Of a DNA stretch of 64,000 nt, positions 1 to 31,260 are shown piece after piece. The position numbers were made by a program, and so were the translations under genes. Source of the stretch: Bacteroidales bacterium. GTDB lineage: Bacteria > Bacteroidota > Bacteroidia > Bacteroidales > UBA6680. The notes below the pieces were generated by a model that made no database searches, had not been told where the DNA came from, and saw nothing but the letters and a program-made list of their open reading frames with translations. The DNA is taken from NCBI GenBank assembly GCA_025210735.1, contig JAOARD010000073.1:1-64000 (forward strand), read 5' to 3'. Position 1 is the stretch's first letter; each line of letters begins with the position of its first letter.

Positions 1-770
1 GGTTTTAGTGTTAACTTCAAAAAGTAAGCAATCTCTTAGCATAATTGATAGGAAACGATTGTAACAAGAATTAAAACTATAATACAAATAATGTAAGAAT
101 GTGCTATAAACGTTAATTCTTTATATTTAGCTGAAAAGCTATTAATTGCTTATTCAATACTTTTTTCAATAGCAAAAAAAGTATTCAAAAATGCCACCGC
201 CACACAAAATATCTTAATATCTCTTTATGTTCAAGTCCCCAGATGCTAGTTCGAGCTGGTAGCTCGGACTGAACCCGCTTAAATATAGAAGATATTCTGA
301 TTGATGGTAACAATTCTACATACCTACAACATATAATCAATTTGTTTACAGTATACTAAACATCAAATCTTATACGCTTAAACTTTAAGCTGTCTTTTCA
401 GGACGCCTTCTTCCATATTCATTTAACCCGATGTGTTACATCGGATTAAACAAGCTGGGATTTCAGCCCGTCATTGTAGAACGGTTGACATCCATACATT
501 TTACCTGTTACAGCTGCTTACTAAGACATGAATCCACTTAACTATTAGAAATATTCCAATTGATGTAATACATACAAGGATATCATTCATTCCGCCACGA
601 AGTGGCAGCTTACCTAGCCCTATGCAACGCGTAGGGCGATAGGATTAAAAGAACAAGCGCACTGAAAGTGCAGGTTAAAACAAGATATATACTAATTACC
701 CATCCACCCCTCCTAGTAGGGGAGTTTATTGTAACACAATATATTACGGATATTAACACATATAACTGTA
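1..770 (+). repeat. Hairpin-repeat array A
   Basis: No gene is visible in the first kilobase. Instead there is a chain of different short perfect or near-perfect palindromes separated by AT-rich spacers: an AGCT-centred one at 252-266, GTCxTTTCAGGAC at 392-404, CCCGATGTGTTACATCGGR at 427-445, GGGATTTCAGCCC at 457-469, GCCACGAAGTGGC at 594-606, GCCCTA/TAGGGC at 617-637, GCACTGAAAGTGC at 659-671 and a C-rich/G-rich one near 707-722. Bases 1-60 resemble another module seen near 10.51 and 12.25 kb. Order and spacers recur in arrays B to F, so this is one repeat family. It looks like REP/BIME-type intergenic sequence, but no transposase lies nearby. Seeing the repeats is certain; their nature is inferred. 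Confidence 0.85.
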
Positions 771-848
771 AGCTAAACAGAGAAACCTTTATTTAATTTA
801 TAAGCAAGCAAAAGCGTAATGAGATTCAGAATAGACAGCAATTAAACT

Positions 849-910
849 GTTATAAAGTATGTTTTTTATAACATAACACTTTGTAGATAGGTATATCTTT
901 TATAGTTTCG
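849..910 (+). promoter_or_regulatory. Candidate rdrAB promoter with upstream palindrome
   Basis: TTTG at 880-883 is followed after 19 bases by TAGTTTCG at 903-910, a 7/8 match to the Bacteroidota -7 element TAnnTTTG. Just upstream is a perfect inverted repeat, GTTATAAA (849-856) and TTTATAAC (865-872), which could be an operator or the end of an upstream transcript. It lies about 95 bases before the rdrA start. Motif matching only. Confidence 0.4.
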
Positions 911-1005
911 GGATTTCTAAATACAATATATTAAATAACAATATTTATTATCAATAAACTAACCCAAAGAGTAGGTACTTATGCCATTCTGAAAAAACAT
1001 ATTTT

Positions 1006-3741
1006 ATGAGTAACTCAAAAATCCTAAACATTGATCTTAATGAGGAGTACAAGATCAAAATAGAGAGTCCTTCTGAGCTAAATGACTCTTTCTTTGCTGA
1101 TATATACAGACAAGCAGGAGAAGCAGCAAATGACATACTTGATAAATCATACGAAAAAAATAATCCTGCTCAAGATGATACTAGAAAAGATAGTATCAAA
1201 TACTTTAAAAGACAAAATGAAGAGTATAATAATATAATAGCTTTCTGTGGTGACAGAGGTACCGGAAAGAGCTCTGCAATGCTTAGCTTTGCTAACAGCT
1301 TGAATCAGATAAAAAAATGTAAAAACATCTACAAAGATACAGCTCTGGAAAATTACCAATTCTTTCATATAGAAGTCATTGATCCATCTATGTTTGAGGT
1401 AAAGGAAAGTATATTCGAAGTAATCCTTGCTCAACTATTCTCCTCTTTTGAGAACAAATTAAAGGATAATAATCATGATGGTAATCATGAAGAGAGAAGG
1501 AAGATTCTTGAACTATTTGAAAAGGTATATGATAATCTAAAAACAATACAGAAAAATGGAGAGAAGTATAATGGAGAGGCTCTTGAAACATTGAGTAAAC
1601 TATCGTGTGGGGCAAATCTTCGTAACAACTTCAACAATCTTATTAAGAATTATCTTGATTATCTTAAGAAGGATAAAGACAGTAAAGCATGTCTAATAAT
1701 CCCGATAGATGACTTTGATCTGAATATAAAGGCTGTTGCAGATATGGCTGAACAGATACGCAAATATCTTATGATACCAAAGGTTATTATATTAATGGCA
1801 GCGGATATAAGACAGTTATCTGATGCAAAAGAGCAGAGCGTTCGTAAAGATTTTAAAACTCTGATTGATGCTAACTCTATGTCTGAGACTCCAAAATCCA
1901 TTACTGCAAAGTATTTACTAAAACTCATTCCTGACAAAAGAAGATTAACATTACCTTTTACAACAAAAAAGGATTCTAAAATATCACTTTACGATGGTAC
2001 AAATAATGAAATATGTAACAGCGAAAATATTCAGGATTTATTTTTAAAATTATGCTATACTAATTATCACATATTATTTGTAAAACCAGAGACTGGTACT
2101 CATCCAATTATTCCAGGAAATATAAGAGAATTAATTGAATGGCTCATATTTCTGAACATAACCTACGATAATAAATTAGTTGCTTTAGATTATTTCAATG
2201 ATAGGTTTGTAAATGTATATTGCGAAAATTATCTATCAAAAGAAGATCTTAATATTATATATTTAATAAACGAAACCACATCTGACAGATTTCACAAAAC
2301 TATAATTGAAGAGATAGTGGCTCTGTTTAAAAAGAATGACTTTTCTATAGAAAAAGAACATATTAATATTGTTGGTAATGATGATTCTGAATTAATTAAT
2401 GAGTTTAAAGAGATTATCAACAGAGGTAATTATGCTTACAATATATCATTAGGCGATATTCTTCTATTTCTTGATATTGTAGAAAGATATCATAGTACTG
2501 ATAGGTTTAAGAAATTAATTTTTGCTATAAGAACGTTAATAACAATTAGATTAAAGAAAGGTATTCTAAAAGATGATGATAATTTAAAATTTAACTCAAT
2601 TGTTGCTGGTAATATATTAAATTCTAAAAGAGTTCAACTATTACCAAAAAATAGAACCCATTTTAAATTTTCCTATGAAGGAATACAGGTTGACAATTTT
2701 AAACTGAACGATATTCTTAAATCCAGTTTTCAGAAAGTGAATAATGACAAATTACACTATGTTGACATGGCTGAACTTCTTCATTATTTTGTTTCAAGAA
2801 TTGGCGGTAATGAAAATTACAGAAAAGAAAGTGCTAAATTCTACGATCAGAAAATAAATAGATGGGGGTCTAAACAGCAACATGCATTCTTCGATTTGCT
2901 ATCACCTATTTACTACTTAGAGAATACAAAAACTGTTTCAGAAAGAATTCATAATATATATAACGAAAAAGACGATAGTCTATTTTCTGAATACATTCAG
3001 AACTTCATTAAAGAAAACTATAAACATAGTTTTCCATTTGAAAGCGTAGAGCTAATAGAGTATATCTTTAATGACTTCGACAACGACTATAAAGAAAAAA
3101 TTGAAAATATAACGTCTCTGTTTAGTCAACCATATAAAGGTATCATTGATAAGTTCGATTATTTCAAAAAACATCATACATTCTACAATATAGACATTGA
3201 AGGTTACTTTAAAACAAGTCCTATTCTTGAGATATTTTTCAATGATTCATTCAGGTCTAAATCAAAAATTGACAGTAATTTTGAAGAGAATGCTCTTATT
3301 AATTCATTATTAGATTCTATTAAAAAGTATAGTGACGAAATTCATATAAAATCTCCAATAGTTAAAAAACTTAACGACAATAGTATTTACTTAAATATTC
3401 TCGATGAAATCCATAAAGATTTCGATGAAAATAAATCTAAAAAGGATAGTATTTACCTTGATATTTCAAGCAGTTTAGACAGTTTAAAACAAACTCTAAC
3501 AAAAAATCCTAAAAAAGGAACAACTTTTAGCAGTTATATAAAGAAAATAATACCAAAGCTCACTAAGACATACCAACAAGCAATAGCTTACGACCATTTA
3601 TCGTCTGCTATTAACAGAAATATTGATAAAAATAAGTTTTACTCTCATAATGAACAATTAAATTTTATTAATAGTATTGAAAGTTATCTTAAACATCAAG
3701 AAAATAAAAATGAATTTATAACAGAAAGCTCCGATGAATAA
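1006..3741 (+). CDS. rdrA: RADAR anti-phage system ATPase RdrA
   Basis: This 911-residue protein carries a Walker A motif, GDRGTGKS, at residues 82-89 and a Walker B motif, LIIPIDDFD, at 230-238, followed by a long region without recognisable motifs. It has no signal peptide or membrane segment, so it is cytoplasmic. Sequence alone would only say large P-loop ATPase. The RdrA call rests on the combination of size, an N-terminal ATPase and the directly overlapping adenosine-deaminase gene. In characterised RADAR systems RdrA forms ring-shaped assemblies that work with RdrB against phage. The ATG at 1006 lies shortly after an AT-rich leader, with a candidate promoter at 880-910. Reading into rdrB overlaps by 8 bp, indicating coupled translation. 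Confidence 0.88.
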   Translation: MSNSKILNIDLNEEYKIKIESPSELNDSFFADIYRQAGEAANDILDKSYEKNNPAQDDTRKDSIKYFKRQNEEYNNIIAFCGDRGTGKSSAMLSFANSLNQIKKCKNIYKDTALENYQFFHIEVIDPSMFEVKESIFEVILAQLFSSFENKLKDNNHDGNHEERRKILELFEKVYDNLKTIQKNGEKYNGEALETLSKLSCGANLRNNFNNLIKNYLDYLKKDKDSKACLIIPIDDFDLNIKAVADMAEQIRKYLMIPKVIILMAADIRQLSDAKEQSVRKDFKTLIDANSMSETPKSITAKYLLKLIPDKRRLTLPFTTKKDSKISLYDGTNNEICNSENIQDLFLKLCYTNYHILFVKPETGTHPIIPGNIRELIEWLIFLNITYDNKLVALDYFNDRFVNVYCENYLSKEDLNIIYLINETTSDRFHKTIIEEIVALFKKNDFSIEKEHINIVGNDDSELINEFKEIINRGNYAYNISLGDILLFLDIVERYHSTDRFKKLIFAIRTLITIRLKKGILKDDDNLKFNSIVAGNILNSKRVQLLPKNRTHFKFSYEGIQVDNFKLNDILKSSFQKVNNDKLHYVDMAELLHYFVSRIGGNENYRKESAKFYDQKINRWGSKQQHAFFDLLSPIYYLENTKTVSERIHNIYNEKDDSLFSEYIQNFIKENYKHSFPFESVELIEYIFNDFDNDYKEKIENITSLFSQPYKGIIDKFDYFKKHHTFYNIDIEGYFKTSPILEIFFNDSFRSKSKIDSNFEENALINSLLDSIKKYSDEIHIKSPIVKKLNDNSIYLNILDEIHKDFDENKSKKDSIYLDISSSLDSLKQTLTKNPKKGTTFSSYIKKIIPKLTKTYQQAIAYDHLSSAINRNIDKNKFYSHNEQLNFINSIESYLKHQENKNEFITESSDE

Positions 3742-6397
3742 CCTAAGAGCATCCATTGATGTACTATTCAGAAAGATATCTCCAGACAAAGTATTCAAAG
3801 AGTTTTTTGAGCCGTTAAATAGCAGGATTTTATGTGAATATATTTGGCGGGACAAAACATCTGCTTACAGGATATTTGATGAGTTATTACACTACTCGCA
3901 TGATGAGATTCACAATATATGGAACAAAATAGATGAGGATTGGGCAAAAGATAGAGAGACTGACAAAAGATCTGTATTTGGTTTACTTTATGAATTCGCT
4001 AAAGAGGTTCTTATTCAGGATGGTAATAGCGTTTGTGTAGATTTTAAGGATCTGTTGCGATGGAGAGAGTTATCACTGTTAGTTGGAGAGGATCTGCTTA
4101 CAACATGTTTTCTATCTCAACGCGACAGGGTTTCACGACATAAACGATCGTTCTTTTCATGGAGTCCTATACTCACAACTAATAATTACAGGTTAAAACA
4201 GCTACTCAAAAAGGGTACTGCAGAGAATCACTTTCATCTGGGTGGATCAGCCCCGCACTCTGATATCAGTTGGATTGCCCTTATGAACAGTATTACAGAC
4301 AGAAAAGGTCAGTTCAAGGATTTCCTGAAAAAGGGTAAACTGTCTCCGACTGTTAGTTATAGCGAGAAGTGTGAGAACTCAGAGTTATATATACTTACTA
4401 TAAAAGCTTGTTATATAAGGTTACTTCTGTTTTACAAACTAAATAAATTAAAAACAGATTCTAATATATTCGATAACAACGTAATTAGCAGACTGCTTAA
4501 ACCGGATTCAAATAGCAGGGATAGTCTTGATATAATTACTAAAACAGCTGAGATACAAAGGTATATTAACAGCACCAAACATATACATGGTAAGAGACTA
4601 TCTGATGACAAGTTCTCTGTAATACCAGATTACTGTATAAGCAAGAGTACAGACGTCTCTAATATTAATGGAAATGTAATGCTTAATGGCGAACGCCAAT
4701 TTATGTATAAATGCTTCAGAGCTTATTTTAGTAATGATAAAGATTTTATGCCTTATGCAGATCTGTTCTATTCTTACATACTGATAAAGTCAAAGTTCAG
4801 AGAGGAGATGATACAGCTAAATAAAAATGTTGGCTTTGCCAATTTTGCAAACTATCAGGACAGGAAGGATGTGTTTGTTAAAAACAGCGCTAATATATAT
4901 AGGTTTGCAATAACAAATATGGCTGTAAATGTCAGTTGTAAGAATCAGGCAATACAATCAATTGAGGCACGTGTAAAACCTAAATCCAGTAAAGAAAGTA
5001 ATATATCAACAATACGTGCTTTAGATAACACTGTTAGATCCGAGATATTCTCAAATATATCAAATAACAGGTTTGATACATTTGCTGAGAGATATAATAA
5101 TGATAAATCAGATACAGAGTCTGATAAACACTTTTATGTTACACACTTTATAAAAAAGGGTGATAAGGATAAGAATGGTAAGTTATCTGACGATATCTTC
5201 TCTATGAGATGCAGAGATATGGTAACCAGAAAGGGCACAGAGGATGAAGCTAGAGCGATAATAAGGCTGCGCAGTAGTTTGAGCAGAACAGCTCAAAGAA
5301 TACGGGGTATAGATGCAGCCTCATCGGAACTGGATTGCAGACCGGAAGCCTTTGCTCAGGCATACAGGTATATAAAGTATCACAGACTGAATGGTGAACT
5401 TGATCATTTAAGAGAGAAAAAGAATATGCCTGTTTTAAGAGCTACATTCCATGCCGGAGAGGATTTTTATGATATTGTTGATGGTTTACGGGCAATTGAT
5501 GAAGCTATAAAGTTCCTTAATCTGGATGATGGAGACAGACTTGGACACGCTATTGCATTAGGTCTGAATGTAAGGGACTATTATGAGAGTAAACATTATG
5601 ATCTTATGTTGCCTAAGCAGTGGCATCTGGATAATATTGTATGGCTGATATCACGCATAAATAAGTATAATCTGCATCAGTACTCAACACATACAAATCT
5701 GTTAAAGAATCAGTTCTATAATCTGTTTAATGAGATATATGATATTGATGATCTGTCTGGTGTAACACCTGATCTCTATTATGAGGCATGGAAACTAAGG
5801 GGTGATGATCCGTATATGTACCGATCGGGCAAATATATAGAGTATAAGAATACAGATTTCTGGCAGCGATGTGCAAAGAATGAGTTATATCCCGGAAAAC
5901 GTGTAAACAGGAACGATAATATTGTAAATAAACTTTATTATCACTACCACTTTAATGCAAAAGTTAAGAAGAGTGGATATGAGATGAAACGTTTTGTTGT
6001 AGAGCAGGATTATATAAATATTGTTACCGATGTTCAGCGTTGCTATCAGAGAGATATTGCCGAGAGGCATATTGGTATAGAGACAAATCCATCATCGAAT
6101 TATCTGATTGGTACCTTTAAGCGTTATGATAAACACCCAATTCTACAGTTCTTTAATCTTGGTTTAGAGAGCAACTATGAGAAGATTGATAACTGCCCGC
6201 AGTTGTTTGTATCTATCAATACAGATGATCAGGGTGTGTTTAATACTTATCTTGAGAATGAGTATGCGCTAATGGCTTTGGCTTTGGAGAAGATGAAGGA
6301 TGAAAAAGGAAACAGGTTATATAAACCTGCAATGATATATGATTGGTTAGATCGTATTCGCCAAATGGGTCTGGAGATGAGTTTTGGGCACGATTAA
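3734..6397 (+). CDS. rdrB: RADAR anti-phage system adenosine deaminase RdrB
   Basis: This 887-residue protein has a split adenosine-deaminase catalytic core. The zinc-binding HFHLGGS lies at 166-172, FHAGED at 572-577 (candidate catalytic Glu576), RLGH at 602-605 and SINTDD at 827-832, the expected motif order for metal-dependent deaminases. The ~400 residues between the first two motifs are far longer than in nucleoside-salvage deaminases (about 330-350 residues in total) and match the large RdrB architecture. In studied systems RdrB converts adenine in RNA and/or ATP/dATP to hypoxanthine during phage infection. All metal and catalytic residues look intact, so it should be active. It is the last gene of its operon; a strong hairpin follows. 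No SLATT or Csx27-like accessory gene is in the operon. Confidence 0.92.
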   Translation: MNNLRASIDVLFRKISPDKVFKEFFEPLNSRILCEYIWRDKTSAYRIFDELLHYSHDEIHNIWNKIDEDWAKDRETDKRSVFGLLYEFAKEVLIQDGNSVCVDFKDLLRWRELSLLVGEDLLTTCFLSQRDRVSRHKRSFFSWSPILTTNNYRLKQLLKKGTAENHFHLGGSAPHSDISWIALMNSITDRKGQFKDFLKKGKLSPTVSYSEKCENSELYILTIKACYIRLLLFYKLNKLKTDSNIFDNNVISRLLKPDSNSRDSLDIITKTAEIQRYINSTKHIHGKRLSDDKFSVIPDYCISKSTDVSNINGNVMLNGERQFMYKCFRAYFSNDKDFMPYADLFYSYILIKSKFREEMIQLNKNVGFANFANYQDRKDVFVKNSANIYRFAITNMAVNVSCKNQAIQSIEARVKPKSSKESNISTIRALDNTVRSEIFSNISNNRFDTFAERYNNDKSDTESDKHFYVTHFIKKGDKDKNGKLSDDIFSMRCRDMVTRKGTEDEARAIIRLRSSLSRTAQRIRGIDAASSELDCRPEAFAQAYRYIKYHRLNGELDHLREKKNMPVLRATFHAGEDFYDIVDGLRAIDEAIKFLNLDDGDRLGHAIALGLNVRDYYESKHYDLMLPKQWHLDNIVWLISRINKYNLHQYSTHTNLLKNQFYNLFNEIYDIDDLSGVTPDLYYEAWKLRGDDPYMYRSGKYIEYKNTDFWQRCAKNELYPGKRVNRNDNIVNKLYYHYHFNAKVKKSGYEMKRFVVEQDYINIVTDVQRCYQRDIAERHIGIETNPSSNYLIGTFKRYDKHPILQFFNLGLESNYEKIDNCPQLFVSINTDDQGVFNTYLENEYALMALALEKMKDEKGNRLYKPAMIYDWLDRIRQMGLEMSFGHD

Positions 6398-6474: not shown

Positions 6475-6690
6475 AATCAGACTGAATCCTCTTAACTATT
6501 GAAGATATTCAGATTGATGTAGAATAACCAAACATCCATTTAACACATAACCAGTTTGTTTACAACATACTAAACATCAAATTTTATACGCTTAAACTTT
6601 AAGCTGTCCTTTCAGGACGCCTTCTTCCGTATTCATTTAACCCGATGTGTTACATCGGGTTAAATAACCTGGGCTTTCAGCCCGTTGTGT
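6475..6690 (+). repeat. Hairpin-repeat array B
   Basis: This is a shorter copy of the composite repeat, in the same orientation as array A. It holds the TGTTTACA-like spacer, the GTCCTTTCAGGAC hairpin, the CCCGATGTGTTACATCGGG hairpin and GGGCTTTCAGCCC. About 140 bases (6548-6687) match roughly 331-472 closely by eye, so RADAR sits between direct repeats. It fills the gap between the rdrB terminator and the convergent membrane-protein gene. Confidence 0.85.
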
Positions 6691-6701: not shown

Positions 6702-7226
6702 TTATGATTTCTCTTCTTTATTAAATGGCCAAAGAATTGCAACTGCAGGTGAATAGAACATTAACCAGAATCCAGAAATAACCCTTACTCCTCTATACTC
6801 TATTCTGTTATATTCACTCTCCGTAATCTCTTTAATTATCTCAGCTCCATTCTTTATAAAGTACCTGTCGCCTGTAATAACAGCTGAATATCCATTCATA
6901 TTATCACTGAAATCAATATAAATTGATAGTCCAAAATGAATTATGTTATAAAAGAAAAAACATGCTGCCATTATAGCAAGAAATCTAGGGCTATCTTTTA
7001 ATGCAACTCCATAAAAAGGTCCTGCATTTAACTTACGAATATTTTCATAACTAAACTCAGGTTTCTTATTTAGCAGTATAATTGCCTGTCTGAACACCAC
7101 AAATATGCCTATAGTAAGTAACCATGTTATTATACCATCGATATATACCCCTAAAATATTAGCTATATGAATAATAAAGCCAACTATTAACCCTATAACT
7201 GCTAAACCAAAAAATATCTTTCTCAT
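6702..7226 (-). CDS. Small membrane protein, unknown
   Basis: I do not recognise this family. From the ATG at 7226 it is 174 residues long. Two hydrophobic helices occupy about residues 4-42, a third lies near 80-100, and a final hydrophobic stretch at about 150-168 leads to a charged C-terminus. A TTG 45 bases upstream would lengthen it but would overlap the preceding gene, so the ATG is preferred. It is third in a tight minus-strand run (NADAR protein, secreted protein, this protein), with 20 bases to the gene before it. It faces rdrB tail to tail. RADAR operons can carry small membrane accessory proteins, but the opposite strand and separate operon argue against that role here. Confidence 0.65.
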   Translation of the reverse strand: MRKIFFGLAVIGLIVGFIIHIANILGVYIDGIITWLLTIGIFVVFRQAIILLNKKPEFSYENIRKLNAGPFYGVALKDSPRFLAIMAACFFFYNIIHFGLSIYIDFSDNMNGYSAVITGDRYFIKNGAEIIKEITESEYNRIEYRGVRVISGFWLMFYSPAVAILWPFNKEEKS

Positions 7227-7246
7227 AAATGTTTTGTATATGTACG

Positions 7247-8119
7247 TTATTTTTTTGAATATTTTAACCAAAGATCAAGCTCTATCTCTGATAAGCATCT
7301 GCTTTCTGCATTAAATTCAAACATAAAATCATAGGTACTCGTAATCCTTTTGCCTTTTCGTTTTATAATATCAAATCTGATATCTTTCAATGATTTCGTT
7401 ATTATCTTATCCAGATATTTACAATCACAATCTGAGTCAGTACATACAACATCTTTAATACAACCATTCTTTCCTATTTTTATATAAAAATTGCCAGAGC
7501 AGCTACTATTAATCTCAGACCAATCTATAGACTCTTTCAGTTTATTGTATAGTGTTACTCTTGTTTTGTGATAATTAAACCTGTTGATACCTTCAGGAGT
7601 GTCATAATAGTTAACGTGCTTCTTAAACCGTTTTACAATGCCCTTTTTAATCTTGTAGCTATAGGCAAACTCTTTATTATAAACATTAAACTCCCTGCCA
7701 AAAGGGCAGTATAATTTATTGCTAAACCAGTAGGCAAACACTCTGCCATTCTTATATCTATTACCAAACATTGTACTCATATCTGCTTTTGCTGTGTCCT
7801 CTCTTAAACCTGTGTATGAGTAACAGTCAAGAATATCTGTCAGAAAAAGACTATCATTCTGTATTGTCCAAAAAGCGACATAGTCTCTATAGCACGCAGT
7901 ATAGTTACACCCTGATGTACCGGGAATTGTTCTATCACCAACCTCATTAAGATAGGTTTCAAGAGGAAATCCCTCATAATCCATCATCATATTATCTAAA
8001 TATAGTGTATCACTATTTATTACTAATATGTCTGATATCTGGTCACATCCGTATGATATATCCGTATTCCGAATTAACAGGATAAATATCACAGACAATA
8101 GTACTGTAGTTTTTTTCAT
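7247..8119 (-). CDS. Secreted protein with TonB-C-like tail, unknown
   Basis: This is a 290-residue protein from the ATG at 8119, the start that opens with a clear signal peptide (MKKTTVLLSVIFILLI); an upstream in-frame ATG would overlap the NADAR gene by 61 bases. Just after the signal comes SDILVINSDTLYL. Cysteine-containing central segments follow, and the C-terminal ~80 residues resemble the TonB C-terminal fold (GCIKDVVC, then a long beta strand). It has no proline-rich linker or N-terminal anchor typical of TonB. It is clearly paralogous to the protein at 31870-32652, sharing the DTLYL opening, the LFLT/LYLT line and the KNG...W motif. The substrate and role are unknown; a periplasmic or envelope location is inferred from the signal peptide. 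Confidence 0.72.
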   Translation of the reverse strand: MKKTTVLLSVIFILLIRNTDISYGCDQISDILVINSDTLYLDNMMMDYEGFPLETYLNEVGDRTIPGTSGCNYTACYRDYVAFWTIQNDSLFLTDILDCYSYTGLREDTAKADMSTMFGNRYKNGRVFAYWFSNKLYCPFGREFNVYNKEFAYSYKIKKGIVKRFKKHVNYYDTPEGINRFNYHKTRVTLYNKLKESIDWSEINSSCSGNFYIKIGKNGCIKDVVCTDSDCDCKYLDKIITKSLKDIRFDIIKRKGKRITSTYDFMFEFNAESRCLSEIELDLWLKYSKK

Positions 8120-8136
8120 TGATCTTTGTATATATA

Positions 8137-8682
8137 CTAACTCAACTCGTCGCGTACCTCCATCAGGGCAAAGCCAAGCAGGTTTAGTCCGCGCCATTTT
8201 AAGGGGTTTTTAACATGTTCGTTATCTGCTGCAAGACCTATTCCCCATATTGCATCAACGGGGCTTGCCTCAACAATTACTTTATCTTTTGTAGATAGTA
8301 TAAACTCTTTAAGCTGGCTGTTTTGCGAAAATTTTGCAGCATTACCTCTCTTTACAATATCGTATCTGTTGGCTACCCATACATCTTCATTAAAACCTTT
8401 TACCTCTCTTCCGTACTGTTTGGTTTGTTTAGACGATGTTGCATTAATTATCTTCTCAAGTGTAACTGAATCGTTAAATAGTCGCGCTTTTTCTGCCATC
8501 ATATAGTGTTCTGCAGAGAAGTATTTTATATTATCTATTGTAAATTCAGATTGCCACCACTGACTAAAACAACTTACTCCTATCTCTCCGTCTTTTCTCT
8601 TCTGGTGTCCCCAGAAGAATATGTATTTTGGTTTTCTACCTGACCTAAAGTCCTCTTTTAGTTTATCTATATTGTATTTCAT
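8137..8682 (-). CDS. NADAR domain (YbiA-like) protein
   Basis: This 181-residue single-domain protein matches the YbiA/DUF1768 NADAR fold. It has IFFWGH near residue 22, SQWWQSEF at about 40-47, the characteristic AEHYMMAEKARLF at about 56-68, and the C-terminal AIWGIGL and NPLKWRGLNLLG. Members bind ADP-ribose-type ligands. YbiA protects bacteria from reactive riboflavin-pathway intermediates by N-glycoside hydrolysis, and other NADAR proteins remove ADP-ribose from nucleic-acid bases and occur with phage defence and DarT toxins. It heads a three-gene minus-strand run, 17 bases before the secreted protein. Its position 1.7 kb from RADAR, within the same repeat-bounded segment, suggests but does not prove a defence or counter-toxin role. 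Domain call is firm; the substrate is unknown. Confidence 0.85.
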   Translation of the reverse strand: MKYNIDKLKEDFRSGRKPKYIFFWGHQKRKDGEIGVSCFSQWWQSEFTIDNIKYFSAEHYMMAEKARLFNDSVTLEKIINATSSKQTKQYGREVKGFNEDVWVANRYDIVKRGNAAKFSQNSQLKEFILSTKDKVIVEASPVDAIWGIGLAADNEHVKNPLKWRGLNLLGFALMEVRDELS

Positions 8683-9621: not shown

Positions 9622-10098
9622 TTATCTGTTCTGATCAGCTTTAATAACAACCGTTTTCGCCCACATATCGCCTAAACGCTGACTTTTGTCGTTACTCTTA
9701 ACCACAATAATACCTACAATGCCAAAAAACGATATATCAACAAAATCTAACAGGTGCCTTTTTAGTGATTGTCCGAATGAAATACGTTGATGTTTTCCGT
9801 TGTAGTTGTTTATCATGTATGAATCAGGTACAGATATTGGCATAAGTCCTACTATTCCGTTACCAATAGTGGCTCCGAGAAGTTGTTCTGTTACTACTGT
9901 TAACAGAAACCATAATATTACAGGAACAAGTATCTGCGATCCGCTAAGTACAAATCCTCCGGATGTATCTTCTAATCCAAATGCCGATGCATAAACGTAT
10001 GTTAATCCGTATATGGCAATGTAATCTATTAATGCAGCAGCAATCCGTTTTCCAATAAATGGTTTTGTGGTAAAGTGTTCTGAGTTATCTGTATTCAT
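9622..10098 (-). CDS. RDD family membrane protein
   Basis: This 158-residue protein shows the RDD family layout: an N-terminal KPFIGKRIAAALIDYIAIYGLTY (Arg-Asp signature in helix 1), a second helix at about 55-72, the middle GNGIVGLMPISV segment, and a final helix with ...LLDFVDISFFGIVGIIVV followed by SQRLGDMWAKTVV. The last motif is highly characteristic. RDD proteins are small integral membrane proteins; some act as ion antiporters, most are uncharacterised. It is the first gene of a two-gene unit with the DUF3592-like protein, behind a TATATTTG promoter element at 10169-10176. Confidence 0.85.
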   Translation of the reverse strand: MNTDNSEHFTTKPFIGKRIAAALIDYIAIYGLTYVYASAFGLEDTSGGFVLSGSQILVPVILWFLLTVVTEQLLGATIGNGIVGLMPISVPDSYMINNYNGKHQRISFGQSLKRHLLDFVDISFFGIVGIIVVKSNDKSQRLGDMWAKTVVIKADQNR

Positions 10099-10194: not shown

Positions 10195-11370
10195 AAGGAA
10201 TCTCAAATAGCGAAAAATACCCACCCCTAGCCTCTCCAAGGAGGGGAGTTTATTGTAGTATAATGTATTACGAACACTCAATCACAAGTTATTTAACCAA
10301 TCTCATAATTCACTGAACCACTTTAACAATTGAAGATATTCTGATTGATGTAGAACAATTACACATATAACCAACTTATTTACATCATAATAAACATCAA
10401 ACTTTATATGCTTAAACTTTAAGCTGTCCTTTCAGGACGTCTTCTTACGTATTCATTTAACCCAATGTGTTACATCGGGTTAAATAACTTGGACTTTCAG
10501 CCCGTTATGGTAAAGCCATCTCTTAGCTTAGTTGATGGTAAAAGTTATATGAATATAATTATTGATTAAGGTAGTATCTGTCAATAAACATGTCTCGCTT
10601 TGAGTAGAGCGATTAACACCCACCCCTATCCCCTCCAAGGAGGGGAGTTTATTGTAACATAATGCATTGCGAATATAACCACCTGAATTACCCTGTAAAC
10701 AATTTTTTCATTTCCGAGGTAGTATTATACAGTAACACATCCATCATCTCCTAAGCTAATTCCAGCTGCCAGCTCGGACTGAACCCGCTTAACTATTAGA
10801 GATATTCCAATTGATGTAGAATTATCTTACACACTAACAACATATAACCAATTTGTTTACAGTATACTAAACATCAAATTTTATACGCTTAAACTTTAAG
10901 CTGTCCTTTCAGGACGCCTTATCCCATACTCATCTAACCCGATGTGTTACATCGGGTTAAATAACCTGGGCTTTCAGCCCGTCATTGTAGAACGGTTGAC
11001 ATCCATACATTTTATCTGTTACAGCTGCTTACTAAGACATGAACCCGTTTAACTATTAAAGATATCTATATCGCCACGAAGTGGCAGCTTACCCAGCCCT
11101 ATGCAACGCGTAGGGCAGTCTGATCAGAAGAACAAGCGCACTGAAAGTGCAGGTTAAAAATAAGATCCATCCATATTTACCCACCCCAACCCCTCCAAGG
11201 AGGGGAGTTCATTGTAAAGTAATGCATTACGAATATAACCACCTGAATTTTCCAGTAAACAATTTTTTTAATTCCGAGGTAGTATTATGCAGTAACTCAC
11301 CCATTAACACGAAGGAACTCTCCTCCCCGGAGGAGACACAGAGGTGGGTAATTGTTTACGAACAGTTATA
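10195..11370 (+). repeat. Hairpin-repeat array C (multi-copy)
   Basis: This gene-free 1.2 kb block holds about two and a half copies of the composite repeat in tandem, in the same orientation as array A. Each copy contains the GTCCTTTCAGGAC, CCCxATGTGTTACATCGGG and GGxCTTTCAGCCC hairpins in that order (near 10430-10502 and 10905-10981). The module between them carries TCGCTTTGAGTAGAGCGA and a CCTCCAAGGAGG stem. The last copy (about 10768-11210) follows array A module by module, including spacers such as GTAGAACGGTTGACATCC. It ends with GCCACGAAGTGGC, CCCTATGCAACGCGTAGGG, GCACTGAAAGTGC and a CTCCTCCCCGGAGGAG stem. A 74-codon open frame here is built from repeat sequence and was not called. Confidence 0.88.
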
Positions 11371-12069: not shown

Positions 12070-12460
12070 GTTGAACAATTATTATACATTCCTAACATAT
12101 TATAAATATGTTTACAGTATACTAAACATCAAATTTTATACGCTTAAACTTTAAGCTGTCCTTTCAGGACGCCTTATTCCATACTCATCTAACCCGATGT
12201 GCTACATCGGGTTAGATAACCTGGGCTTTCAGCCCGTTATGATAAAGTGATCTCTTAGCGTAGTTGATGGCAAAAGTTATATGTATGTAGTTAATTGGTT
12301 AAGGTAGTATCTGTCAATAAACATGTCTCGCTTTGAGTAGAGCGATTAACACCCACCCCTATCCCCTCCAAGGAGGGGAGTTTATTGTAGTATAATGTAT
12401 TACGCTAACTCAACCTCAAATTATTTAACCAATCTTATAATTAAATTAGAGGTAATTTTT
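12070..12460 (+). repeat. Hairpin-repeat array D
   Basis: This is one copy of the composite repeat in the A orientation: the TGTTTACAGTATACTAAAC spacer at about 12110, then the GTCCTTTCAGGAC, CCCGATGTGCTACATCGGG and GGGCTTTCAGCCC hairpins. A module with TCGCTTTGAGTAGAGCGA and CCTCCAAGGAGG, ending in AATGTATTACG, follows. It is almost identical in order to the first half of array C. It is the last array before the B12 region. Confidence 0.85.
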
Positions 12461-30429: not shown

Positions 30430-31260
30430 AAGCCACCCTCTGTATCTCCTCCTGGGAGGAGTTAGGTTCTAAATACATAAATGTGTTCTCCATCAATCAG
30501 AATATCTCCTAGTAGTTAAACGGGCTCAGTCCGAGCTGCCAGCTCGAACTAGCATTAGGGTGTGTATTACCAGATAATATTACCTTGAATTGAATTATGA
30601 TATTTATTTATTGGTAAAATAATTGGTTTGCATGCAAATACACGTAACTCATTATATTACAGCAAACTCCCCTTGAAGGGTTAGGGGTGGGTAATTAGTA
30701 TATATCTTGTTTTAACCTGCACTTTCAGTGCGATTGTTCTTATAATCTAACCGCCCTACGCGTTGCATAGGGCTAGGATAAGCTGCCACTTCGTGGCGAT
30801 AAAAGTATCTCCAATAGTTAAGCGGGTTCAATCCGAGCAGTCGTCAGGAATAGGCAAATCGTATGCATGTCAATCGCTCTACTCTAAGCGAGACATGTTT
30901 ATTGACAAGTACTACCTTAACCAATAAGCTATATAGATATAAACCTTTCCATCAACTACGCTAAGAGATTGCTTTAGAATGGCGGGCTTAGTCCGAGCTA
31001 CCAGCTCGAACTAGCTTTAGGGTATGTATAACCGGAGATTATTACTTCTAATTGAATTGTGAGATTGGTTAAATAACTTGAGATAGAGTTAGCGTAATAC
31101 ATTATGCTACAATAACGGGCTGAAAGCCCAGATTATTTAACCCAATGTGTTACATTGGGTTAAATAAATATGAAAGAAGGCGTCCTGAAAGGACAACTTA
31201 AAGTTTAATCGCATAAGATTTGACACTTAGTATACTGTAAACAAACTGGTTATGTATTAC
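30430..31260 (-). repeat. Hairpin-repeat array E (inverted)
   Basis: This gene-free block carries the composite repeat in the opposite orientation to A-D. In order it has a CTCCTCCTGGGAGGAG-like stem, CCGAGCTGCCAGCTCG, the G-rich module, GCACTTTCAGTGC, CCCTACGCGTTGCATAGGG, GCCACTTCGTGGC, TCGCTCTACTCTAAGCGA, another AGCTACCAGCT stem, then GGGCTGAAAGCCC, AACCCAATGTGTTACATTGGGTT and GTCCTGAAAGGAC. Some stems carry paired substitutions relative to other arrays (for example ATTGGG with CCCAAT). The wider 30168-31409 gap holds nothing else but a promoter element. Confidence 0.88.

What the first reader, a model, noticed from the sequence alone, without database searches (positions are those of the whole stretch)
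1006..6397. Complete RADAR (rdrA-rdrB) defence operon
The sequence shows a 911-residue P-loop ATPase overlapping by 8 bp an 887-residue protein with HFHLGG, HAGE, RLGH and NTDD motifs in order. Established knowledge: this combination is the RADAR anti-phage system, whose deaminase edits adenine-containing substrates during infection. All deaminase motifs look intact, and no accessory membrane gene (SLATT or Csx27-like) is in the operon. A variant in a Bacteroidota host is a useful comparison with the studied enterobacterial systems.
Basis: partly seen in the sequence, partly recalled or inferred. Interest (0 to 1): 0.8.

Follow-up and report, generated by a model that had tools for sequence, protein, structure and literature searches.

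The report
RADAR phage defence with swappable sensor
A bacterium of the Bacteroidota carries an intact two-gene RADAR anti-phage system of known kind, and in its nearest relative half of one gene, the suspected phage sensor, looks exchanged while the rest is almost unchanged, which offers a direct way to test what RADAR senses.

Summary
The finding is right in substance. rdrA (1006-3741) and rdrB (3734-6397) overlap by 8 bp and are intact. Both match RADAR profiles. Family profiles reach the solved RADAR complex: RdrB E 5e-109, RdrA E 2e-13. All RdrB zinc and catalytic residues are invariant in 15 RdrBs. It is a standalone rdrAB RADAR, a new member of a known kind. NCBI's curated RdrB cut-off is not reached: 189 against 800 bits.

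In a same-genus relative, RdrB is 94% and the RdrA AAA+ core 89% identical, but RdrA falls to 55% at residue 315 and 31% from 519, recovering at the rdrA stop. Synonymous change rises there too, favouring replacement over selection in place. All five near-sister pairs compared in this RADAR clade show the pattern; four pairs from other lineages do not. Trees conflict in one group. One lineage splits rdrA near the same boundary.

Best reading: ordinary RADAR (ATP/dATP to inosine nucleotides, after published work) whose RdrA C-terminal half is an exchanged module, probably the phage sensor. The sensor role is inferred. Both structure predictions failed.

The parts
1006..3741 (+). rdrA, 911 aa, AAA+ ATPase of RADAR
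   Evidence: PADLOC RdrA 2.9e-15; family profile matches E. coli RdrA 8fnt 1.8e-13 over profile positions 66-324
1006..1947 (+). RdrA conserved AAA+ core, residues 1-314 (Walker A from residue 82, Walker B D235 D236)
   Evidence: 89% identical to the same-genus relative L009 (segmentation); motifs
1948..2559 (+). RdrA variable module, first part, residues 315-518; R374 is a possible counterpart of the published sensor 2 arginine (my inference)
   Evidence: 55% identical to L009, break at residue 315; R374 invariant in 7 RdrAs
2560..3738 (+). RdrA variable module, second part, residues 519-911; no Pfam family
   Evidence: 31% identical to L009 against 24.7% for shuffles; Pfam
3734..3741 (+). 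8 bp overlap of rdrA stop and rdrB start; right edge of the variable module
3734..6397 (+). rdrB, 887 aa, adenosine/nucleotide deaminase of RADAR
4229..4237 (+). RdrB HFH (H166, H168), zinc ligands by homology
   Evidence: invariant in 15 of 15 RdrBs; E. coli ligands named in PMC9994260
5450..5461 (+). RdrB HAGE (H573, E576): zinc ligand and catalytic glutamate by homology
5537..5548 (+). RdrB RLGH (H605)
6218..6229 (+). RdrB NTDD (D831, D832)
   Evidence: D831 and D832 invariant in 15 of 15 RdrBs
706..1005 (+). Conserved leader or promoter region; no ORF of note
   Evidence: part of the 80% identical DNA match 706-2559 to L009

Best explanation
This is a standalone rdrAB RADAR anti-phage operon. 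By homology, RdrA forms a ring with an AAA+ core that docks on an RdrB deaminase shell; on infection the complex turns ATP and dATP into ITP and dITP and stops phage growth. Shown here: both genes intact, family membership by profile, all catalytic residues present, and strong modularity of RdrA. The RdrA C-terminal half (residues 315-911) has a different history from the AAA+ core and RdrB: in this RADAR clade it has been exchanged or kept as divergent alleles, while the catalytic platform is nearly constant. Inferred: that half is the part that senses phage, and exchange retargets the system.
For: Identity. The rdrA-rdrB order recurs in all 19 systems compared, each RdrA with a Walker A. Modularity: segmentation of window against L009 gives identity 0.89 (RdrA 1-314), 0.55 (315-518), 0.31 (519-910), 0.94 (RdrA 911 to end of RdrB). 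Four-fold sites differ at 42 of 254 in rdrB, 30 of 81 in the core, 11 of 17 and 9 of 14 in the two C-terminal parts; codons for identical residues differ at 111 of 801, 75 of 273, 51 of 109, 47 of 102 (core against the two parts p 4e-4 and 8e-4). Flanks are the same chromosomal locus. Near-sister pairs of the window's clade, RdrB against RdrA C-terminal identity: 94/40, 89/25, 78/26, 78/24, 67/27; four pairs of other lineages: 76/56, 71/70, 48/38, 45/38. Topology: RdrB joins G598 with G980 (99/99) and rejects G980 with G698 (p 5e-8); the C-terminal half joins G980 with G698 (92/91) and rejects G598+G980+G460 (p 0.004). BLASTP of C-terminal halves: G980-G698 2e-52, G598-G980 3e-11. rdrA is two ORFs, broken close to the same boundary, in G460 and G1101. 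Sensor idea: PMC9994260 proposes the RdrA C-terminal domain as the sensor, trigger unknown.
Against: No function was tested. No donor of the module was found: none in 6 further genomes searched with the C-terminal half, only weak hits (E 2e-4 and 9e-4, the second with stops) outside the two species in 386 Bacteroidales genomes with the 519-911 part, none among plasmids. In the C-terminal data the G598+G980 pair is not rejected at 0.05 (p 0.066). The four-fold test of core against the C-terminal parts alone is p 0.057 and 0.078. For G598/G980 synonymous sites do not separate the parts, and the core also differs from RdrB there (62% against 89%). The window pair still groups together in the C-terminal tree (90/93), so its module is divergent rather than foreign to the clade. 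NCBI's RdrB cut-off is not reached. One related locus, L035 (G258), has an rdrB cut by the contig end with no rdrA beside it.
Confidence: 0.72

Rival explanations
1. The RdrA C-terminal half was not exchanged; it diverges quickly in place under selection from phages, or because it is little constrained.
For: Published RdrAs keep little beyond the ATPase site in 270 systems (PMC9994260). In G598/G980 synonymous change is even across parts. The window module is still closest to that of L009.
Against: Synonymous change also rises in the window pair; the right edge falls at the rdrA stop; trees conflict; other RADAR lineages keep this half about as well as RdrB, save the last 120 residues.
Confidence: 0.3
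2. The C-terminal half is the old, vertically inherited part, and the core plus rdrB were made alike by gene conversion between lineages.
For: rdrB has less synonymous change (dS 0.27) than four of five shared neighbours: NADAR 0.43, glycosyltransferase 0.60, cobC-like 0.81, the 250 aa gene 1.17; the fifth, the RDD gene at 0.04, shows that recent exchange happens in this locus.
Against: The C-terminal dS (mostly above 1.1, in part saturated) exceeds most of those same neighbours; one neighbour, the 250 aa gene, reaches 1.17.
Confidence: 0.2
3. The second gene is an ordinary salvage adenosine deaminase, or a CARF-fused deaminase effector, and the operon is not RADAR.
For: Pfam A_deaminase 8.7e-11; PADLOC CARF_ADA 3.2e-6 over residues 774-848.
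Against: 887 aa against about 330-370 for the solved ADAs; RdrB profiles far outscore ADA profiles; no CARF domain found by Pfam; next to an RdrA-type ATPase in all 19 systems compared.
Confidence: 0.02
4. The RdrA C-terminal half varies because it fits different partners inside the host (membrane, other subunits) and not phage triggers.
For: No experiment seen here links this half to phage. The last four helices of S. suis RdrA form a protein interface (PMC9994260).
Against: Two species of one genus with the same locus should have similar internal partners, yet this half is what differs between them.
Confidence: 0.25

Closest known systems
RADAR standalone subtype (rdrAB): E. coli, Citrobacter rodentium and Streptococcus suis systems (PMC9994260; subtypes as told in PMC7699616, passage seen)
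   Same: Two-gene order, AAA+ core, RdrB deaminase with the same metal and catalytic residues, proteins near 900 aa.
   Different: RdrB about 20% identical to the two proteobacterial ones aligned; RdrA C-terminal half without detectable similarity by profile comparison (HHalign probability 1.3 against 99.9 for the cores) and varying as a block.
Same-genus RADAR of Bacteroidales bacterium UBA6680 (L009, also G001)
   Same: Same chromosomal locus; RdrB 94%, RdrA core 89% identical.
   Different: RdrA C-terminal half 40% identical overall; lacks the two genes at 6702-8197 between rdrB and the NADAR gene.
Aureibacter tunicatorum plasmid pAT1 RADAR (L017)
   Same: RdrB 42% identical over 859 columns; same order.
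   Different: Followed by a SLATT-domain gene that overlaps the end of rdrB.
Cad1, CARF-fused adenosine deaminase of type III CRISPR systems (PMC11645235, passages seen)
   Same: Deaminase that makes ITP as defence.
   Different: Switched on by cyclic oligoadenylates through a fused CARF domain; no AAA+ partner.

Membership tests
RADAR (rdrAB) | Tandem rdrA (large ATPase) and rdrB (large deaminase) | tested here: met
   1006-3741 and 3734-6397, 8 bp overlap
RADAR (rdrAB) | RdrB-specific profile match, beyond plain ADA | tested here: met
   PADLOC 5.8e-30, NCBIfam 1.4e-55; 8fnw 369 bits against 45 for the best salvage ADA
RADAR (rdrAB) | RdrB score above NCBI's curated equivalog cut-off NF041744 (an annotation rule, not the biological definition) | tested here: not met
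   189 of 800 bits; none of the 10 matching genomes among 395 Bacteroidota searched reaches it either
RADAR (rdrAB) | RdrA profile match with Walker A and B | tested here: met
   PADLOC 2.9e-15, residues 1-336; family profile to 8fnt 1.8e-13; GDRGTGKS, IDDFD. The window RdrA alone found no PDB chain.
RADAR (rdrAB) | RdrB zinc histidines and catalytic glutamate | tested here: met
   H166, H168, H573, E576, H605 invariant in 15 of 15
RADAR (rdrAB) | RdrA helical C-terminal domain homologous to the solved one | tested here: inconclusive
   HHalign finds no match of the C-terminal halves of the window's clade and of other RADARs; model pLDDT 35, although its secondary structure is helical beyond residue 339
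RADAR (rdrAB) | Heptamer-dodecamer assembly and ATP to ITP conversion on infection | not testable with these tools
   needs purified proteins and infected cells
RADAR subtypes with Csx27 or SLATT | Accessory gene in the operon | tested here: not met
   None downstream on the strand or in the 1005 bp upstream; further upstream is beyond the contig

The most novel reading that the evidence does not exclude
In one Bacteroidota clade of RADAR the C-terminal half of RdrA is an exchangeable recognition cassette, bounded by the end of the AAA+ core and the rdrA stop codon, plugged into a constant ATPase-deaminase platform; swapping it retargets the system, and in one lineage it has become a gene of its own.
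Probability: 0.4. Interest if true: 0.68.

Novelty: new member of a known kind. Interest (0 to 1): 0.45.

Why it matters
What RADAR senses is open: the structural paper names it as unknown and only proposes the RdrA C-terminal domain (PMC9994260). Two nearly identical systems that differ almost only in that domain are a ready natural experiment: exchange the halves and ask whether phage range follows. The same data also say where to cut (end of the AAA+ core, near RdrA residue 315 in the window protein), and that the other RADAR lineages compared would be poorer material, since there mainly the last 120 residues vary.

Tried and rejected
Structure prediction: both models were useless (RdrA mean pLDDT 35.3; RdrB 31.5), probably because only three rows were used, so no fold search was run. 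An ordinary or CARF-type deaminase was rejected on profiles. A local cassette store was looked for and not found in G000 and G001. A donor was looked for in 386 Bacteroidales genomes and in plasmids and not found. E. coli was useless for the pair test: the 23 of 5426 genomes with a match are all at least 99% identical to the Salmonella rdrB used as query. Phage records: no match. Viral contigs: none with the single protein, one distant RADAR with the alignment. The empty site was sought in G002 through the NADAR gene, without success.

Rows not used in the pair counts: genome hits G072, G107, G258, G363, G1333 and plasmid hits H3-H5 (truncated, weak, or not fetched). G1101 was left out of the trees as a near copy of G460. 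The 9 pairs were chosen as near sisters out of 19 systems; one search gives all 21 pairs of 7 systems. Of the five window-clade pairs, four share members and are not independent. The clades tested were partly chosen after seeing the identity table.

Full report
OBSERVATION. rdrA runs 1006-3741 and rdrB 3734-6397, both on the + strand with ATG starts and an 8 bp overlap. Walker A and B are present in RdrA; the four RdrB motifs are present in order and their metal and catalytic residues are invariant in the 15 RdrBs aligned. Open frames of 911 and 887 codons with these motifs are far beyond chance.

IDENTITY. PADLOC models give RdrA 2.9e-15 (residues 1-336 only) and RdrB 5.8e-30 and 6.2e-30. NCBIfam's RdrB model matches residues 73-881 at 1.4e-55, but at 189 bits against a curated cut-off of 800; in a sample of 395 Bacteroidota genomes 10 match this model and none reaches the cut-off, so the cut-off appears to be set for other lineages. 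A single-sequence search of the PDB found RdrB structures (7e-23) and nothing for RdrA. Alignment profiles reached RdrB 8fnw at 5e-109, with the best salvage deaminase at 4e-11, and RdrA 8fnt at 2e-13 over the AAA+ part; only two distinct sequences matched the RdrA profile, both 947 aa. Published systems are themselves only 22-28% identical in their conserved parts (PMC9994260), so this divergence is not unusual. According to a commentary, RADAR has three subtypes: standalone rdrAB, Csx27-associated and SLATT-associated (PMC7699616, passage seen). The window is standalone as far as its contig shows.

MECHANISM. From PMC9994260 (sections on introduction, diversity, RdrA, complex and discussion read; other passages): RdrA is a heptameric AAA+ ring, RdrB a dodecameric deaminase, the RdrA crown docks on RdrB, and infection leads to ITP and dITP. 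The trigger is unknown; the authors propose the RdrA C-terminal domain as the sensor. I take the enzyme mechanism over by homology; nothing here tests it.

THE MODULE. The nearest relative is L009 (Bacteroidales bacterium UBA6680), apparently the same contig as G001:C27 of the same genus. RdrB is 94% identical along its whole length. RdrA is not: likelihood segmentation places breaks at residues 315 and 519 and at 911, the last codon, with identities 0.89, 0.55, 0.31 and then 0.94 into RdrB. On DNA, similarity returns at the start of rdrB, with one mismatch in the next 65 aligned bases. The 519-911 part is only a little above shuffled sequence under global alignment (31.3% against a mean of 24.7%, maximum 30.0%, 60 shuffles), though BLASTP still finds it (5e-17). 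The main blocks of the rest of the shared locus are collinear and 82-93% identical at DNA level.

REPLACEMENT OR SPEED. If only selection on protein sequence were at work, silent change should be even. It is not in this pair: four-fold sites differ at 17% in rdrB, 37% in the core and 65% and 64% in the two C-terminal parts; codons for identical residues differ at 14%, 27%, 47% and 46%. The contrast of the C-terminal parts with rdrB is strong (p 3e-5 and 2e-4 by four-fold sites); with the core it is borderline by four-fold sites (0.057, 0.078) and clear by identical-residue codons (4e-4, 8e-4). Neighbouring genes have dS from 0.04 to 1.17. So the C-terminal half most likely has an older common ancestor than its surroundings. 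Whether it was brought in, or the surroundings were made alike, is not settled.

OTHER SYSTEMS. Five near-sister pairs of the window's clade give RdrB against RdrA C-terminal identities of 94/40, 89/25, 78/26, 78/24 and 67/27. Four pairs of other RADAR lineages give 76/56, 71/70, 48/38 and 45/38, where mainly the last 120 residues vary (window-wise view). The pairs of the first set share members. In the group of G598, G980, G460 and G698, RdrB puts G598 with G980 (99/99) and rejects G980 with G698 (p 5e-8), whereas the C-terminal half puts G980 with G698 (92/91), rejects G598+G980+G460 (p 0.004) and does not quite reject G598+G980 (p 0.066); the core is undecided. G598 and G980 both have a 1146 aa gene upstream of the operon, so the site is probably shared. 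Branches are long and some groups were named after the identity table was seen, so this is support and not proof.

SPLIT GENE. In G460 and G1101 rdrA is two ORFs, 317 aa and then 486 or 493 aa, the second starting two bases after the first stop, close to the module boundary. The two systems are almost identical in sequence, so this is one event seen in two assemblies. It may be a true gene fission or a shared frameshift; the alignment runs across the junction.

WHAT WAS NOT FOUND. No further copy of the module in G000 or G001, and none in six other genomes. No convincing homologue of residues 519-911 outside the two species in 386 Bacteroidales genomes, nor of the whole half in plasmids, and no Pfam family reaching its cut-off for seven C-terminal halves. 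Both structure predictions failed.

LITERATURE. Searches of the held library for RdrA, RdrB and RADAR and for sensor exchange in anti-phage systems listed one primary RADAR study, PMC9994260; a second structural paper (Gao et al., Cell 2023) is cited in PMC11645235 and was not read, nor was the discovery paper. In these searches I saw no report of block exchange of the RdrA C-terminal half; subscription papers are largely outside the library.

VERDICT. A correctly recognised RADAR operon, new member of a known kind, with a modular RdrA that makes the sensor question testable. My estimates: identity about 0.97; published enzyme mechanism applying here about 0.85; divergent-module history about 0.8; replacement as its cause about 0.55; sensor role about 0.5.

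Noticed in passing
window 267-471, 6480-6690, 10312-10509, 10777-10982, 12093-12241, 31114-31259: A family of roughly 150-210 bp intergenic repeats with palindromic cores; 18 matches in the genome, the eight best all in this contig and in C51. The copy at 6480 closely follows rdrB.
   Followed up: partly
window 6702-8197 (-): Two genes (189 aa, 316 aa) sit between rdrB and the NADAR gene here but are absent from the same place in L009, where rdrB and NADAR are 76 bp apart.
   Followed up: partly
window 8137-8682 (-): NADAR family protein (Pfam 4e-53; weak match to a NADAR anti-phage model, 45 of 240 bits) convergent with the RADAR operon and conserved in L009.
   Followed up: no
window 9622-10098 (-): The RDD-family gene has dS of only 0.04 between the two species, far below four neighbours (0.4-1.2), suggesting very recent exchange.
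   Followed up: no
L017 8732-9439 (Aureibacter plasmid): SLATT-domain gene overlapping the rdrB end in the Bacteroidota RADAR on a 615 kb plasmid.
   Followed up: no
L054 2170-7527 (IMG/VR contig): A RADAR pair (944 and 839 aa) on a contig classed as viral, upstream of ORFs that look from recall like terminase, portal and protease genes: RADAR probably carried by a prophage.
   Followed up: no
L036 11207-13740 and L039 11001-13535: Two Bacteroidota RADARs are preceded by a Schlafen group 3 helicase with GIY-YIG and S24-like domains; in L039 the 115 aa gene before it is MazG-like, and L036 has a 115 aa gene in the same place.
   Followed up: no
L035 8-1987 (G258): An rdrB cut by the contig end whose upstream neighbour is on the other strand: no rdrA beside it in the stretch read. 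Orphan rdrB or rearranged system.
   Followed up: no
RdrA residue 267 (window 1804-1806): The position that may match published sensor 1 is D in the window, L009 and the other RADAR lineages printed, but K or N in the other members of the window's clade.
   Followed up: no
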